Below, piece after piece: positions 40,151 through 51,184 of a stretch of DNA of 64,000 nucleotides; the first letter of the stretch is position 1; the number at the start of each line of letters is the position of its first letter. Both the position numbers and the translations under genes were made by a program. Location: contig DATBHW010000055.1 in the NCBI GenBank assembly GCA_036557285.1, positions 62,001-126,000 on the forward strand, read 5' to 3'. The notes under the pieces were generated by a model. That model was not told the DNA's origin, did no database searches, and saw only the letters and a program-made list of their open reading frames with translations. The stretch comes from Ktedonobacterales bacterium (lineage in GTDB: Bacteria; Chloroflexota; Ktedonobacteria; Ktedonobacterales; DATBGS01).

Positions 40151-40223
40151 GAAGAAATCTTTACAGAAAAGGAGCCAGAAAGCCCCCGAATCTTTAGTCG
40201 GGGGATGAATGGCCCAAACGCTG

Positions 40224-40261
40224 CGCTGTTGACAGCGTTCCACCAATGTGATACCATTGGT
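40224..40261 (+). promoter_or_regulatory. RHH-tnpB promoter overlapped by two dyads
   Basis: TTGACA (40229-40234), a 17-nt spacer and TACCAT (40252-40257, preceded by TGA). The -35 lies inside CGCTGTTGACAGCG (40224-40237) and the -10 inside ACCAATG-N6-CATTGGT (40242-40261). The RHH ATG at 40264 is 6 nt after the -10, so the transcript should be leaderless. Confidence 0.7.
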
Positions 40262-40263
40262 AC

Positions 40264-40455
40264 ATGAAACAGCACACCGGCTTTCGCCTTTCTGAAGATG
40301 CTTTGCGACTCTTGGATGCGCTCGCAGCGCGGCATGGATTGAATCGTACCGCCGCGCTAGAGATGCTGATTCGTGAGGCGGCCCGCCAACAGGGGATACA
40401 TGCTGATACTGGAATACAAGCTCAGGGTCAACAAAACACAGCGCGCCGCGATTGA
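40264..40455 (+). CDS. ribbon-helix-helix protein encoded in the TnpB element
   Basis: A 63-residue protein whose first 40 residues follow the RHH pattern. A beta strand TGFRLSEDALRLLDALA is followed by helix HGLNRTAALEMLIREAA with the turn at GLNRT. The tail (about 42-63) is polar and overlaps the start of tnpB. RHH dimers bind operator dyads through their beta strands, and two dyads lie on its own promoter, so autorepression is likely. There is no Shine-Dalgarno; the ATG is predicted to be at the 5' end of the mRNA. It is too short to be a transposase. Confidence 0.7.
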   Translation: MKQHTGFRLSEDALRLLDALAARHGLNRTAALEMLIREAARQQGIHADTGIQAQGQQNTARRD

Positions 40456-41614
40456 TGAAGCCATCCGTACCACGCAGTTTGTGCGCAACAAGGCGCTGCG
40501 GCTCTGGATGGATGGGCAGCATGTTGGCAAGAATGACCTGCAAGCCCTCTGCGCTCAGTTGGCGAAAGACTTCCCCTTTGCGGCGCGTCTCAATGCGATG
40601 GCCCGCCAGGCCGCCGCAGACCGGGCGTGGGCCAGTATCAGCCGTTTCTACGAGAACTGCAAGTGTGGCAAGCCAGGCAAGAAAGGCTATCCACGCTTCC
40701 AGAAGGATAATCGTTCGGTTGAGTACAAAACCTCGGGCTGGAAGTTGGAACCAGCGGGAAAGCGCGTCACCTTCACCGATGGGCACGGCATTGGCGCCGT
40801 TCGCCTCATTGGCACACGCTCCATTGAAACGTTTCCCATTGGGCAGATCAAGCGGGTTCGCATCCTCAAACGCGCCGATGGCTCTTATGTCCAGTTTGCC
40901 GTCCAGGCAGACCGGCACATAGACCACCAGCCCACCGGGAAACAGGTGGGGATTGATGTGGGCTTGAAAGCCTTCTATACCGATTCGGACGGCCAGCAGG
41001 TCGCCAATCCCCGGTATCTGCGCAAGGCAGAAACGAAGCTCTCGCGCTTGCATCGGCGCGTCTCGCGGAAGGTCAAGCGGTCCAAGAATCGCAAGAAAGC
41101 TATCAAGCGACTGGCGAAAGGCTATTTGAGCGTCAGCAGGCAGCGTAAAGACTTCGCGTGCAAAGCCGCGAGGGCGTTGGTCATATCTAGCGATATGATT
41201 GCCTACGAAGACTTGAAAATAGCGAGCCTGGTCAAGAACCATCGCCTTGCCAAGAGTATCAGCGATGCCAGTTGGGGGTTGTTCCTCTCCTGGCTCAGAT
41301 ACTATGGTCAGATGCACAGCATTCCCATTGTGGCGGTGTCGCCTCGTTTCACCACGCAAGATTGTTCTGGCTGTGGCGAACGGGTGAAGAAAACGCTCAG
41401 CATGCGGACGCACATCTGCCCCGCCTGTGGCCTGGTGCTGGATCGCGATCATAACGCGGCCCTCAACATTCTCGCTGCTGCCTTGGAATATCTGGCAGCC
41501 CTCCGTACCGCCGGGCAGGCGGGAACGGGTTCCGTTTCGGCGGAACGCAACGCTTCTGGACAGACAACCGCTGGTGGACGCAGGAAGCTGCGCTCTGCTA
41601 AGTTGGCTGGATGA
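40400..41614 (+). CDS. tnpB: TnpB RNA-guided nuclease (IS605 OrfB family), apparently intact
   Basis: A 404-residue TnpB. The N-terminal helical/WED region starts MLILEYKLRVNKTQRAAIDE. The RuvC-like catalytic triad is complete: Asp186 in GIDVGLKAFYTDS, Glu270 in IAYEDLKIASL and Asp350 in DRDHNAALNIL. A Cys4 zinc finger (CSGCG...CPAC) lies between. TnpB cuts DNA next to a TAM using an omega-RNA from the element's 3' end. The C-terminal 45 residues past the RuvC domain are polar and may overlap the RNA scaffold. It starts inside the RHH gene, giving a two-gene unit. GGGG lies 4-5 nt before the ATG. Confidence 0.92.
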   Translation: MLILEYKLRVNKTQRAAIDEAIRTTQFVRNKALRLWMDGQHVGKNDLQALCAQLAKDFPFAARLNAMARQAAADRAWASISRFYENCKCGKPGKKGYPRFQKDNRSVEYKTSGWKLEPAGKRVTFTDGHGIGAVRLIGTRSIETFPIGQIKRVRILKRADGSYVQFAVQADRHIDHQPTGKQVGIDVGLKAFYTDSDGQQVANPRYLRKAETKLSRLHRRVSRKVKRSKNRKKAIKRLAKGYLSVSRQRKDFACKAARALVISSDMIAYEDLKIASLVKNHRLAKSISDASWGLFLSWLRYYGQMHSIPIVAVSPRFTTQDCSGCGERVKKTLSMRTHICPACGLVLDRDHNAALNILAAALEYLAALRTAGQAGTGSVSAERNASGQTTAGGRRKLRSAKLAG

Positions 41615-41651
41615 AGGAAGAATCTCCCGGTTAAAACCGGGAGAGTGTCAA
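41560..41651 (+). ncRNA. probable omega-RNA (reRNA) scaffold at the TnpB right end
   Basis: By analogy with characterised TnpB systems, the end of tnpB and the right end, including the hairpin CTCCCGG/CCGGGAG at 41629-41644, form the guide-RNA scaffold. The guide would be the flanking sequence from about 41652 (TGGTTAAGCGTAATTTC). The 5' limit is a guess. Confidence 0.5.
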
Positions 41652-41754
41652 TGGTTAAGCGTAATTTCAACCAGTTTGCCATCTTTTCAGCACAGCGTCA
41701 TCGCAAGCACTCTGCTATACATTAGAATGTCTGCTTATCCCCTTCAACATCCCC

Positions 41755-46874: not shown

Positions 46875-46935
46875 CAACTCCTCATCCCTAACTAAAGGGA
46901 TGGGGCTTCTCAGTTCATTCGGCCTGGCAATCCAG
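46872..46935 (-). ncRNA. probable omega-RNA scaffold of the second TnpB element
   Basis: The element's right end with its hairpin should form the 3' scaffold; the guide would then read out of the element into the FHA gene end (TTCTCCTGCACGCTGAACG on the minus strand). Extent is inferred from family knowledge. Confidence 0.4.
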
Positions 46936-48054
46936 AACCGTCCCTGAAGGCGGTGTCCCCGCCTGTAAAATATTCTTTGCGGCGTTCACGTCGCGGTCTT
47001 CCACATAGCCACACTGAGGGCAAATATGCGTCCGAACCGACAGGCTCTTAGGAACCAGTTCGCCACACTGGAAGCAATGTTGTGTGGTAAAGCGCGCAGG
47101 CACTCGAATGACTTGATGACCAGCTCTTGCAGCCTTGTCCTCAAGAATGTCGAGAAACGCGCTCCAACTGGCGTCGTGAATACTTTTCGCCAGATGATGA
47201 TTTTGTACCATCCCCATGATGTTCAGGTTCTCTACACAAATACGAGCGTAGTTCTCTGCATATGGTTTGGCTGTCTTGAAGAGGAAATCACGCCGCTGGC
47301 GCTTGATTTTCAGATGCGTCTTGGCACAGTTACGAGCAGCTTTCCTTTTGCGCTTACTGCCTTTCTTTCGGCGGCAAAGGGCGCGTTGTTTTCGTCTGAG
47401 TGCTTTCTGACTCGTGCGATAATAGCGCGGGTTGGCGATGGTGTGGCCTTTAGAATCCGCCAGAAACACCTTCAAGCCCATATCCAAGCCAATATTAGGA
47501 TGGGCGCAAGGCTGGCCGTCCTCGTAAGATGGTTGACCTTCTACTGGCTCGCAGACGAGCAAAGCATACCACTTGCCATCTGCTCTCAGTACCAGGCGGG
47601 CTGTTTTAGGGATGCCCTCCAAGGGCCGATGCAGCTTGATTTTGAGCAAGAGGCCCAGTTTGGCAGGGACATGCAAGTGTTTGCCGTCACTGTCCAGCCA
47701 GACATCGCGGCTCTGCGCATACTGGCGGAGTTGGATGCTATGCCAGCGGTTGGGCGTCTTGAAGCGAGGGAACCCACAAGGTACCCCTTGCTCCTTGAAC
47801 GCGAGGTACCGTCTGAGCGCTTTATCCAGGCGATCAGCCAGTGTCTGGACCGTTGTTGCAGGCACGGTATCAGCACCTCGCCCTTTAAACTGCATGGTCA
47901 GATCATACTTGAACAAGAACTTGCCAGTCTGGGCATAGAACTGCTTCGTGGCCTCCAACATCTCATTATAGAGGCTCCGCGAGTCTTTCAGACAGGCCAG
48001 CAACTGTTGGCGCTGGGTGCGATTAGGGTACAGACGATACTCAAACGTTCTCAT
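46915..48054 (-). CDS. tnpB: TnpB RNA-guided nuclease, distinct subtype, apparently intact
   Basis: A 379-residue TnpB starting MRTFEYRLYPNRTQRQQLLA. The catalytic residues are Asp191 in GLDMGLKVFLADS, Glu275 in ICVENLNIMGM and Asp355 in DRDVNAAKNIL, and the zinc finger is CFQCG...CPQC. It lacks an RHH partner and differs in N-terminus and right-end hairpin from the copy at 40400, so the two derive from different subfamilies rather than recent duplication. The protein ends soon after the RuvC domain (ILQAGTPPSGTVLDCQAE). Confidence 0.92.
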   Translation of the reverse strand: MRTFEYRLYPNRTQRQQLLACLKDSRSLYNEMLEATKQFYAQTGKFLFKYDLTMQFKGRGADTVPATTVQTLADRLDKALRRYLAFKEQGVPCGFPRFKTPNRWHSIQLRQYAQSRDVWLDSDGKHLHVPAKLGLLLKIKLHRPLEGIPKTARLVLRADGKWYALLVCEPVEGQPSYEDGQPCAHPNIGLDMGLKVFLADSKGHTIANPRYYRTSQKALRRKQRALCRRKKGSKRKRKAARNCAKTHLKIKRQRRDFLFKTAKPYAENYARICVENLNIMGMVQNHHLAKSIHDASWSAFLDILEDKAARAGHQVIRVPARFTTQHCFQCGELVPKSLSVRTHICPQCGYVEDRDVNAAKNILQAGTPPSGTVLDCQAE

Positions 48055-48226: not shown

Positions 48227-49447
48227 ATGAAGAATCAGGTGCTCGATGATAACCTGTATCATGGGTCTTCCCCTTCGGTTGAGTCGGCGCCAGCGCGCGG
48301 CGAGCGCGTGTGGGTCGAGCGCCCTGATGAACTGGCCGCAGCCGTAGAGAGGCTGGCGTCGGCATCGGTGGTGGCGGTAGACGCGGAGTTTATGCAGACG
48401 CCGCGCGCCGAGCCGGAGGGGCATCGCACCCAACTCGCGCTCCTTCAGATAGCCGCCCAGAGCGGCGCCGGGCTGGTCTGCTATGTTATTGATGTGCTGC
48501 GCCTGGCCGACCTGACCCCCCTGGCCGCCGTGACCGAAGATTCGCTGATTCTCAAGCTCTTTCATGGCGTCGGGGCCGATACCCAGATGCTCGCCCGGCG
48601 CGGCCTGGCGGCGGCCTTTACCTGCGATGTGGAGGCGGCTAGCCGCTCCATTTTTGGGCAGCGCGAGTCGGGCCTGGCGGCCATGCTGGAGCGCGCCTTT
48701 GGCGTTCGCCTGGATAAGAGCTTGCAGCGCGGCGATTGGAGCCATCGCCCGCTTTCCCCAGCCATGTTTGCCTATGCCGCGCGCGATGCGGAGATGACGC
48801 TGGCCCTCTATGACTGGCTCAAGCGCCATTATCCCTGGGCCATCGAACTGCATACCGAAAGCGGCAGCCCGGCTTCCGCAGAGACGACCAGGCTCCCCGT
48901 CTGGCTGGAGCCATTTGTGGATGGCGCGCGCAGCCTGCCCCCGGAAGTCGCGGTGGCTGAGGCCGGGCTGACGGATGATCTGGTCGGCCAGGCCCGCGAT
49001 TGCGCGCTGGCGCTGGCGCTCTTGCGCCACCCTGGGCGGCGCGCCCGGCTGATGCGGCTCATCAGCGATCTGGGCCTGGCGCAGCTTGCCCCGCAGATGC
49101 TGCCTGCCCTGGCCGCGCCCGCCGCCGAAGAACGCGCCGCTGCCGCGCGAACGCTGGGCCGCCTGGCGCGGCTGGGCGCGCCTGATGTGGCGGATGCGCC
49201 AGAGCGTCTGCTGGCGTTGGATGAAGACCCGGTGGCCGAGGTGCGCAAAGCGGCGCGCCTGGCGCTCGATTGGTTGTTGAACGACGCCGTACCCGGCCAG
49301 CGTTATGTCATCCGTCGGCCAGGGGAAGGCCCGGCCTCCTGGACAGTTGGCGCTGAGTCTGTTAATGAATCCGCTGCTGACCCGACAGATGACTGGCGAG
49401 CGGCTCTGCTGGGGCTGATGCCGGACACCAAAGACGACCCGGCGTAG
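48227..49447 (+). CDS. RNase D-like 3'-5' exonuclease (DEDDy)
   Basis: A 406-residue protein. Exo I AVDAEFMQTP supplies Asp and Glu, Exo II LFHGVGADTQML supplies Asp, and Exo III FAYAARDAEMTLALY supplies Tyr and Asp, the DEDDy set of RNase D/WRN-type exonucleases. A C-terminal region from about 230 is Ala/Leu-rich with HEAT-like helices (ARTLGRLARLGAPDVADAPE) instead of a clear HRDC domain. Start is uncertain: ATG 48227 is preferred, TTG 48206 is in frame; neither has a good ribosome site. An isolated AAAGGAGG at 48173-48180 is unused. Confidence 0.85.
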   Translation: MKNQVLDDNLYHGSSPSVESAPARGERVWVERPDELAAAVERLASASVVAVDAEFMQTPRAEPEGHRTQLALLQIAAQSGAGLVCYVIDVLRLADLTPLAAVTEDSLILKLFHGVGADTQMLARRGLAAAFTCDVEAASRSIFGQRESGLAAMLERAFGVRLDKSLQRGDWSHRPLSPAMFAYAARDAEMTLALYDWLKRHYPWAIELHTESGSPASAETTRLPVWLEPFVDGARSLPPEVAVAEAGLTDDLVGQARDCALALALLRHPGRRARLMRLISDLGLAQLAPQMLPALAAPAAEERAAAARTLGRLARLGAPDVADAPERLLALDEDPVAEVRKAARLALDWLLNDAVPGQRYVIRRPGEGPASWTVGAESVNESAADPTDDWRAALLGLMPDTKDDPA

Positions 49448-49487
49448 TTTCAGTGAATGGATGCGCCGAACGCTGTTGGCCCTCTTC

Positions 49488-51002
49488 TTAAACACTGCCC
49501 CCCTTATAGCGATAGACGTTCTGATCGGTAAATCCCAGCAGCACTGGCGAACCGGAAAGAGGCGTAATCAGCAGCATCCTGAGCCGGTAGTTTGTGGTGG
49601 GCGTTGTCAGCCCTTCGGGATAGGGGGCAATGACCTTCCAGGCCGCGTCAGTGAGCAGCGAAACCCCGGCGGTCATGGTCACGCTCTGACGTATCCCAGC
49701 CATATCCAGCACATGGTAGAAGGCGCCGTTCGCTGTGGTCCCAAAGTTCCGCCAGAGATTATCTTCTTCGAGCGGGTCGTCCCAATCAACCTTGAGCGAA
49801 CTCTGCCCGGCGTAGGCGTCCGCGCCGCAGGGTAAGTTTGTTATATTCCCTCCTGTAAAAACGGCTGGTAGGCGCGTCCAGCTTGTCCCCTCATCGGTCG
49901 AGCGCAGTGCTTCTCCAAACCCTTTGGTGGCTTCGGCTGCTGCTTCTTGCTTGTTATACCCGACGGCGTAGAGCGTCGCTGGATGATTCAGCGCCAGGCA
50001 AAACGATGGCTCGTAGGAGTAATTGTTTACCATCACCACCGCGATAAAGCGCCAACTCTGGCCTCCATCGTCCGAGCGGCAGAGTGTCGCCTGGCGAACG
50101 AGGGGGTCTCCTGGCAAGTTCAGCTTGAGTGTTGGGGGTGTCCCTGCGCAGCGAAACTCTTTGAGGTCTACGGCGCTGTAGAGCGTCTGCGGGCGCTGGG
50201 GATTGATTTGCACATAGACATGCTGCTGTTCGCCCGCAACGGGATACCAGCGGATCCAGTGCTTCAGGTCCGCTGTCCAGTAGCCTTCGACATAGAGCCG
50301 TCCAGCCATGATCTGGATCACAGGAACGGCCAGGTTGGTATTCCAGCGGGGCGGGTCTGGCGCCTGCTGCCAATGCTGGCCTCCGTCCCGGCTGACATAG
50401 GAGTGATACGACCCGTCCAGAAGGACCAGGGCATCTGCATTGGTTGGGTCCACTTCGAGACGGCAATTCCCCGTCGCTTCCGGCAAGGGGTAGGCCGTCC
50501 AGTGCAGGCCCTGGTCATTGCTGCGATAAAGATCGTGCAGCACCGCAGGCATATCCTGATAATTGGTTGTATCCCGGCACAGATAGAGTCGTTGCGCGTT
50601 CGCGGGCGACCAGGCGATCTGCGGCATATAGGGGGGATCAGCGCCGTAGGCCGCTGGTGGCGGTGGTGGCAGGGCGGGCAGGGTCCACAGGCGCTGCCAG
50701 GGGCTATTGGGGGCCAGCCCTTCGGTGGGGGTCGGCGCTGTGGTTGAGATTATGGTCGCAGAGCTTGTCGGTGTGCCACCAGCGCCAGTTGGATGCTGCG
50801 TTGGTGGCAGAACGTTACGGAAAATGAGAATATCCGCCACAATCAAGACCAACACTACCGCTGCAATAAGCAGGCGTGTGCTGGGGCGAAGAAAGACACC
50901 CGGCATCCGACGAGGACGAACGGGCAGCGAGGACGGTTCTGTTGACTGGCGCACATCGATCCGGTGCAAGCCGTTCTCTGCTGGCGCTGTATCGTGATTC
51001 AT
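49488..51002 (-). CDS. single-pass membrane protein with extracellular BNR/sialidase-like beta-propeller
   Basis: A 504-residue protein. A 40-residue basic cytoplasmic N-terminus and a transmembrane helix at about 42-62 (LLIAAVVLVLIVADILIFRN) precede a Pro/Thr linker. The large exterior part has repeated Asp-box turns: RSNDQGLHWTAYPL, SRDGGQHWQQAP, RSDDGGQSWRFIAV and RSTDEGTSWTRLP. Such propellers occur in sialidases and in sortilin- or YCF48-like proteins; catalytic Arg triad residues are not evident. It overlaps the sigma-like gene upstream by 4 bp (ATGA), so the two are made together. It could be a sensor or anti-sigma-like partner. Confidence 0.75.
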   Translation of the reverse strand: MNHDTAPAENGLHRIDVRQSTEPSSLPVRPRRMPGVFLRPSTRLLIAAVVLVLIVADILIFRNVLPPTQHPTGAGGTPTSSATIISTTAPTPTEGLAPNSPWQRLWTLPALPPPPPAAYGADPPYMPQIAWSPANAQRLYLCRDTTNYQDMPAVLHDLYRSNDQGLHWTAYPLPEATGNCRLEVDPTNADALVLLDGSYHSYVSRDGGQHWQQAPDPPRWNTNLAVPVIQIMAGRLYVEGYWTADLKHWIRWYPVAGEQQHVYVQINPQRPQTLYSAVDLKEFRCAGTPPTLKLNLPGDPLVRQATLCRSDDGGQSWRFIAVVMVNNYSYEPSFCLALNHPATLYAVGYNKQEAAAEATKGFGEALRSTDEGTSWTRLPAVFTGGNITNLPCGADAYAGQSSLKVDWDDPLEEDNLWRNFGTTANGAFYHVLDMAGIRQSVTMTAGVSLLTDAAWKVIAPYPEGLTTPTTNYRLRMLLITPLSGSPVLLGFTDQNVYRYKGGSV

Positions 51003-51184
51003 GGTGAGACCTCCCTATCTAGCTGCCGATAAACCGCCCGCAGCGTGACTAATCCACGACCAACACGCTTGTGAGCCGCCTCTGTGCTGATGCCCAGCCG
51101 GGCGGCGATCTCCGCGTAACGCTCACCGCCTACAAAACGCAAGAGCAGGCACGCGGCGTCTTCGCGCGAAAGACGGTTCAGCAA
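50999..51184 (-). CDS. region-4-only ECF sigma-like DNA-binding protein
   Basis: A 61-residue protein equal to sigma region 4 of ECF factors: LSREDAACLLLRFVGG, then the HTH RYAEIAARLGISTEAAHKRV and a basic end. The frame is open a further 8 codons upstream (including IATWRYL) before a TAG. Region 2 is missing, and only about 120 bp separate it from der, so no complete sigma gene is possible here. The start TTG has GGAGA 3-4 nt upstream. Translation is coupled to the membrane propeller gene. It may be a decayed sigma factor or a stand-alone region-4 regulator. Confidence 0.65.
   Translation of the reverse strand: MLNRLSREDAACLLLRFVGGERYAEIAARLGISTEAAHKRVGRGLVTLRAVYRQLDREVSP

What the first reader, a model, noticed from the sequence alone, without database searches (positions are those of the whole stretch)
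40165..41651. RHH-controlled TnpB module with operator dyads over a leaderless promoter
Seen: an IS605-like element without TnpA carries a 63-residue ribbon-helix-helix ORF overlapping a catalytically complete TnpB. Its promoter (TTGACA-17-TACCAT) is covered by two independent dyads, CGCTGTTGACAGCG on the -35 and ACCAATG-N6-CATTGGT on the -10, and the RHH ATG follows the -10 by 6 nt. Known: RHH proteins bind such dyads and autoregulate; TnpB is an RNA-guided nuclease. Inference: nuclease dosage is held low by a dedicated repressor, similar in logic to a toxin-antitoxin operon, which could make the element self-maintaining without a transposase.
Basis: partly seen in the sequence, partly recalled or inferred. 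Interest (0 to 1): 0.75.

Follow-up and report, generated by a model that had tools for sequence, protein, structure and literature searches.

The report
TnpB transposon carrying its own repressor
A small jumping gene that encodes an RNA-guided DNA cutter also carries a tiny DNA-binding protein that very probably turns that cutter down, and relatives of the cutter have picked up such regulators again and again, in place of the usual transposase.

Summary
A 1,487-bp IS200/IS605-type element without TnpA carries a ribbon-helix-helix (RHH) gene, laid out for leaderless transcription, overlapping an intact tnpB. Both dyads exist exactly as stated. The genome holds eight diverged copies; all keep the RHH intact under purifying selection with the same -10 / 6 nt / ATG layout. 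The two dyads are not conserved in sequence in the other copies, although dyads over this promoter are enriched as a group.

Relatives of this TnpB lack this RHH family but often carry another RHH in the same slot: of 146 loci, 74 have an RHH (several families, both orientations), 23 a Y1 TnpA, 49 neither, none both. The labels alternate on the TnpB tree. In four of five Arc-like loci the dyad centre is at -14.5, with a different sequence each time.

Best reading: a private autorepressor limiting TnpB, comparable in design to controller-protein operons of restriction-modification systems. The toxin-antitoxin, self-maintaining reading is not supported. I found no description of this pairing in the open-access library. 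Binding and repression are inferred, not shown.

The parts
40161..40164 (+). TTAC, probable target site / TAM at the left end (IS608-like)
   Evidence: TTAC precedes the element in 5 of 8 copies; role inferred from knowledge of IS608
40183..40204 (+). left-end hairpin CCCCCGA..TCGGGGG
   Evidence: sequence; similar hairpins in the other copies
40224..40237 (.). dyad CGCTGTTGACAGCG on the -35
   Evidence: exact; not shared by the other copies
40229..40234 (+). -35 element TTGACA
   Evidence: TTGACA in 7 of the 8 copies (CTGACT in L007)
40242..40261 (.). putative operator dyad ACCAATG-N6-CATTGGT over the -10
   Evidence: exact; p about 0.02; only perfect match in the genome
40252..40257 (+). -10 element TACCAT, 6 nt before the RHH ATG
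   Evidence: same spacing in all eight copies
40264..40455 (+). RHH (CopG-like) regulator, 63 aa
   Evidence: Pfam RHH_1; CopG match; dN/dS about 0.16
40391..40396 (+). possible Shine-Dalgarno AGGGGA for tnpB, inside the RHH gene
   Evidence: sequence only
40400..41614 (+). TnpB RNA-guided endonuclease, 404 aa, catalytic residues present
   Evidence: NF040570; D186, E270, D350
41624..41643 (+). right-end hairpin, presumed 3' part of the guide-RNA scaffold
   Evidence: sequence; right end aligned over seven copies; guide role from knowledge of TnpB
41648..41651 (+). TCAA, right end of the element
   Evidence: GTGTCAA in seven of eight copies, followed by different flanks
41652..41671 (+). flanking DNA that would serve as the guide
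   Evidence: differs in each copy; role inferred

Best explanation
The element is a transposase-less IS200/IS605-type (IS608-like) TnpB element with a dedicated autoregulator. RNA polymerase starts at or next to the RHH ATG, so the transcript is leaderless. It encodes the RHH first and then TnpB from an internal start, and presumably ends in the guide-RNA scaffold. RHH dimers bind the dyad over the -10 and shut this one promoter, so TnpB is made when the element enters a new cell or replicon and is then held low. Shown: gene order, overlap, promoter layout, selection on the RHH, intact TnpB catalytic residues, a genome-unique perfect dyad, and repeated pairing of TnpB with RHHs of several families. 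Inferred: transcription start, DNA binding, repression, and the burst-then-low timing.
For: Eight copies in the genome, all with intact RHH and the same promoter spacing; RHH pS 0.72 against pN 0.27, other frames without such bias; RHH in 74 of 146 related TnpB loci, Y1 in 23, never both; at least 38 label changes on the TnpB tree; RHHs also on distant TnpB lineages L092/L094, L138, L185; dyads enriched over 16 co-directional promoters, p<=0.0005, and over the seven distinct own-genome promoters, p=0.0015; dyad centre at -14.5 in four of five Arc-like loci with different sequences; perfect dyad of the window unique in the genome; CopG and Arc, the nearest folds, are known repressors of their own promoters (established knowledge).
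Against: No binding, transcript or expression data. The window's dyads are not conserved in the other copies, and several copies (L002, L004, L005/L008, L007) have no strong dyad. Against dinucleotide shuffles the per-locus dyad test shows no excess for RHH loci over loci without one. The spacer range of the positive test was set after seeing the sequences. Leaderless layout is also used by an RHH-free tnpB of the window. Overall the enrichment shows that dyads are there, not that the RHH binds them.
Confidence: 0.7

Rival explanations
1. Toxin-antitoxin-like addiction: TnpB acts as the toxin and the RHH as its control, so that loss of the element harms the cell and the element maintains itself without a transposase.
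For: RHH folds are common among type II antitoxins, and antitoxins appear among the fold matches; the regulator-then-effector operon resembles one.
Against: 49 of 146 related TnpB loci carry no detected partner, so TnpB without RHH is tolerated; the RHH tail beyond residue 45 is low-confidence and overlaps tnpB, leaving no obvious toxin-binding domain; RHH persists where TnpB is broken (L008, L094), but two cases decide nothing.
Confidence: 0.08
2. Controller-protein timer: the RHH both activates and represses, delaying and then setting nuclease expression, as C proteins do in restriction-modification systems.
For: Leaderless regulator gene overlapping the nuclease gene, as in PvuII (PMC2997769) and a leaderless C transcript in AhdI (PMC5333194).
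Against: The promoter already has good -35 and -10 elements (TTGACA, 17 nt) and the dyads lie on them, which favours plain repression; C proteins are helix-turn-helix, not RHH.
Confidence: 0.12
3. The RHH acts on the transposon ends (an architectural or transposition factor) rather than on transcription.
For: The gene sits between the left end and tnpB in the slot used by TnpA in relatives; NikA-like mobilisation proteins are among the weak Pfam matches.
Against: The window's dyad does not occur at either end of the element or elsewhere in the genome in perfect form.
Confidence: 0.06
4. The RHH is a passenger without a role for TnpB.
For: This RHH family is confined to this genome within the class, apart from weak hits.
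Against: Purifying selection over eight diverged copies and repeated pairing with unrelated RHH families.
Confidence: 0.04

Closest known systems
IS200/IS605 family, IS608-like, and TnpB-only (IS1341) elements
   Same: TTAC at the left end, hairpins at both ends, TCAA at the right end, intact TnpB
   Different: no TnpA; an RHH regulator gene inside the element, whereas IS1341 is described as encoding TnpB only (PMC9956272)
Controller-protein operons of type II restriction-modification systems (PvuII, AhdI)
   Same: small leaderless regulator gene ahead of, and overlapping, the nuclease gene, acting at its own promoter
   Different: regulator is RHH rather than helix-turn-helix, nuclease is RNA-guided, no methyltransferase; resemblance of design only
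CopG and Arc repressors
   Same: fold, and for the window RHH the nearest sequence in the PDB; known to bind operator dyads
   Different: they control plasmid copy number or a phage switch, not an RNA-guided nuclease
Type II toxin-antitoxin operons with RHH antitoxins
   Same: regulator gene first, effector second, overlapping; presumed autoregulation
   Different: no evidence that the RHH neutralises TnpB protein; TnpB without RHH is common
TldR (nuclease-dead TnpB repressors; from memory)
   Same: TnpB family linked to transcriptional control
   Different: this TnpB keeps its catalytic residues and is the regulated, not the regulating, part

Membership tests
IS200/IS605 element (IS608-like), non-autonomous | conserved ends with hairpins, TTAC at the left and TCAA at the right, different flanks in each copy | tested here: met
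   TTAC in 5 of 8 copies, right end in 7 of 8
IS200/IS605 element (IS608-like), non-autonomous | TnpB with intact catalytic residues | tested here: met
IS200/IS605 element, autonomous | Y1 transposase TnpA in the element | tested here: not met
   only RHH and tnpB between the ends; six Y1 matches elsewhere in the genome
IS1341 (TnpB only) | no gene other than tnpB | tested here: not met
   RHH gene under purifying selection
RHH_1 (CopG family) proteins | strand, helix, helix, with RHH_1 profile match above cut-off | tested here: met
   (24.1 against 20.5 bits); two helices in the model, strand not formed in the monomer
Autoregulated RHH operon | operator dyad over its own promoter, bound by the RHH | tested here: inconclusive
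   dyad present and enriched as a group, not conserved among copies; binding not testable
Type II toxin-antitoxin system | antitoxin neutralises the toxin; loss is harmful | not testable with these tools
   unpartnered TnpBs are common
C-protein restriction-modification operon | helix-turn-helix controller and a methyltransferase | tested here: not met
   RHH regulator; no methyltransferase in the element
TldR | loss of RuvC catalytic residues | tested here: not met
   D186, E270, D350 present

The most novel reading that the evidence does not exclude
TnpB transposons have repeatedly filled the transposase slot with a private RHH repressor of changing family, orientation and operator, making autoregulated nuclease dosage a general and undescribed layer of TnpB biology.
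Probability: 0.5. Interest if true: 0.75.

Novelty: new variant of a known kind. Interest (0 to 1): 0.6.

Why it matters
How TnpB nucleases, the ancestors of Cas12, are kept at levels their hosts tolerate is poorly known. Repeated capture of small repressors in the slot otherwise held by the transposase makes this directly testable: does the RHH set TnpB dosage, and does that decide whether a transposase-less element persists? It also offers several natural regulator-operator pairs for compact nucleases.

Tried and rejected
Search for this RHH family in relatives: 3 of 47 genomes of the class including our own, with the others weak. The first upstream scan of 80 related loci found none; this was misleading, because it looked for one RHH family on one strand only; reading the DNA and scanning both strands found the others. 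The per-locus dyad test against dinucleotide shuffles gave no difference between classes. Viral contigs gave two RHH relatives, one upstream of another TnpB (L185) and one with no TnpB detected (L186). Of six plasmid loci inspected, one (found through its RHH) shows an RHH beside TnpB; the five found through TnpB have none annotated. Rfam found only a tRNA in the window. PADLOC matches of TnpB to Cas12f models reflect shared ancestry. Covariation of operator with RHH residues was seen by eye in the divergent loci but not tested: the two are inherited together, so it is not independent evidence. One paper search was malformed.

Full report
What is there. It is preceded by TTAC, and has a left-end hairpin, an RHH gene, tnpB and a right-end hairpin ending in GTGTCAA. 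The RHH gene (40264-40455) and tnpB (40400-41614) overlap by 56 nt in different frames. Pfam, a CopG match in the PDB and a fold search support the RHH call. TnpB has its catalytic residues and zinc-finger cysteines. Promoter and dyads are exact.

Copies in the same genome. A DNA search found eight copies including this one, the others 73-80% identical. All eight have an intact RHH ORF in the same place and the same promoter spacing: -10, six nucleotides, ATG. Pairwise comparison of the RHH gives pS 0.72 against pN 0.27, with a median dN/dS of about 0.16 where it could be computed (13 of 28 pairs were saturated); the other two frames show no such bias. The RHH is a real, selected gene. The dyads are different: neither sequence is conserved. 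L003 has GTATCA-N7-TGATAC and L006 ATGTGG-N8-CCACAT, while the rest have no strong dyad.

Relatives elsewhere. A scan of named genomes and of 47 genomes of the class gave related TnpBs from Ktedonobacterales and cyanobacteria. None has this RHH family. Their upstream DNA showed other things in the same slot: Y1 TnpA; an Arc-like RHH in the same direction; a divergent CopG-like RHH; and in cyanobacteria divergent RHH-like proteins of several kinds, some with only weak Pfam support. A uniform scan of 146 distinct loci gave 74 with an RHH, 23 with Y1, 49 with neither and none with both; no Y1 was found elsewhere in the other loci. This is a sample of close relatives, not a census, and the RHH queries were taken partly from the same loci. 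On a FastTree tree of 139 TnpBs the labels need at least 38 changes, so partners have changed many times; the direction of change is not known. RHHs also sit on distant TnpB lineages: L092/L094, L138 and the viral contig L185, whose RHH resembles the window's type.

Promoter architecture. In the co-directional loci that could be aligned, whatever the RHH family, the RHH ATG follows the -10 by six nucleotides (seven in L092/L094). In the window only this RHH and one other tnpB have that layout among 735 candidate ATGs. Leaderlessness thus looks like a habit of these elements and is not by itself a mark of RHH control.

Operators. Holding the promoter hexamers fixed and shuffling the rest, 16 co-directional promoters together have longer dyads than expected (sum 95 against 65.6, p<=0.0005), and so do the seven distinct own-genome promoters (37 against 28.8, p=0.0015). 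The strongest point is position: in four of five Arc-like loci the centre is at -14.5, with a different sequence each time; L186 is at -13.5, L185 at -13, the window at -12.5. Limits: the spacer range was set after seeing the sequences, related promoters are not fully independent, and the earlier test against dinucleotide shuffles showed no class difference. The divergent Ktedonobacterial loci share arms such as ATACAGCA..TGCTGTAT and ATACATCA..TGATGTAT over the tnpB promoter. The window's perfect dyad occurs once in the genome, so a wide regulon is unlikely.

Interpretation. The simplest account is autorepression of a private promoter that limits TnpB after an initial burst; the timing is inference. 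The closest documented parallel is the controller-nuclease operon of restriction-modification systems, with a leaderless controller gene that overlaps the nuclease gene and acts at its own promoter (PMC2997769; PMC5333194). The parallel is in design, not descent. Toxin-antitoxin addiction lacks support, because unpartnered TnpBs are common.

Novelty. Seven literature searches on TnpB or IS605 in the open-access library found no paper on an RHH gene in TnpB elements; most subscription papers and bioRxiv preprints are not in that library. A survey of TnpB elements describes IS1341 as encoding only TnpB (PMC9956272). In a Calothrix plasmid such an RHH beside TnpB is annotated as a hypothetical protein. 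I rate it a new variant of a known kind.

Noticed in passing
window 46915-48054, minus strand: A second, distantly related tnpB with no RHH whose own ATG follows TTGACA-17-TATTAT by 6 nt, the same leaderless layout.
   Followed up: partly
L015, L022, L024, L026, L027, L028, L032, L036, just upstream of tnpB: Cyanobacterial TnpBs without an RHH in cis share variants of a dyad CTTATGAT-N9-ATCATAAG over the -10 region, perhaps the site of a regulator encoded elsewhere.
   Followed up: no
L008 (G000:C42, about 49070-51173): One own-genome copy has its tnpB split by roughly 800 bp of other DNA, with about 12 bp of the query matched on both sides, as if by an insertion with target duplication; its RHH is intact.
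   Followed up: no
L094: tnpB appears frameshifted near its start while the overlapping RHH is intact.
   Followed up: no
L186 (viral contig), around 2501: An RHH related to the window's has a leaderless promoter with dyad TACGTGT-N14-ACACGTA, but no TnpB was detected beside it.
   Followed up: partly
L091 (G033): RHH with dyad TGTACCA-N7-TGGTACA next to a left-end-like sequence in the opposite direction; the contig ends before any tnpB.
   Followed up: partly
L194 (Anabaena plasmid NC_019772.1): A related tnpB lies next to an annotated IscB and an HNH gene on a conjugative plasmid.
   Followed up: no
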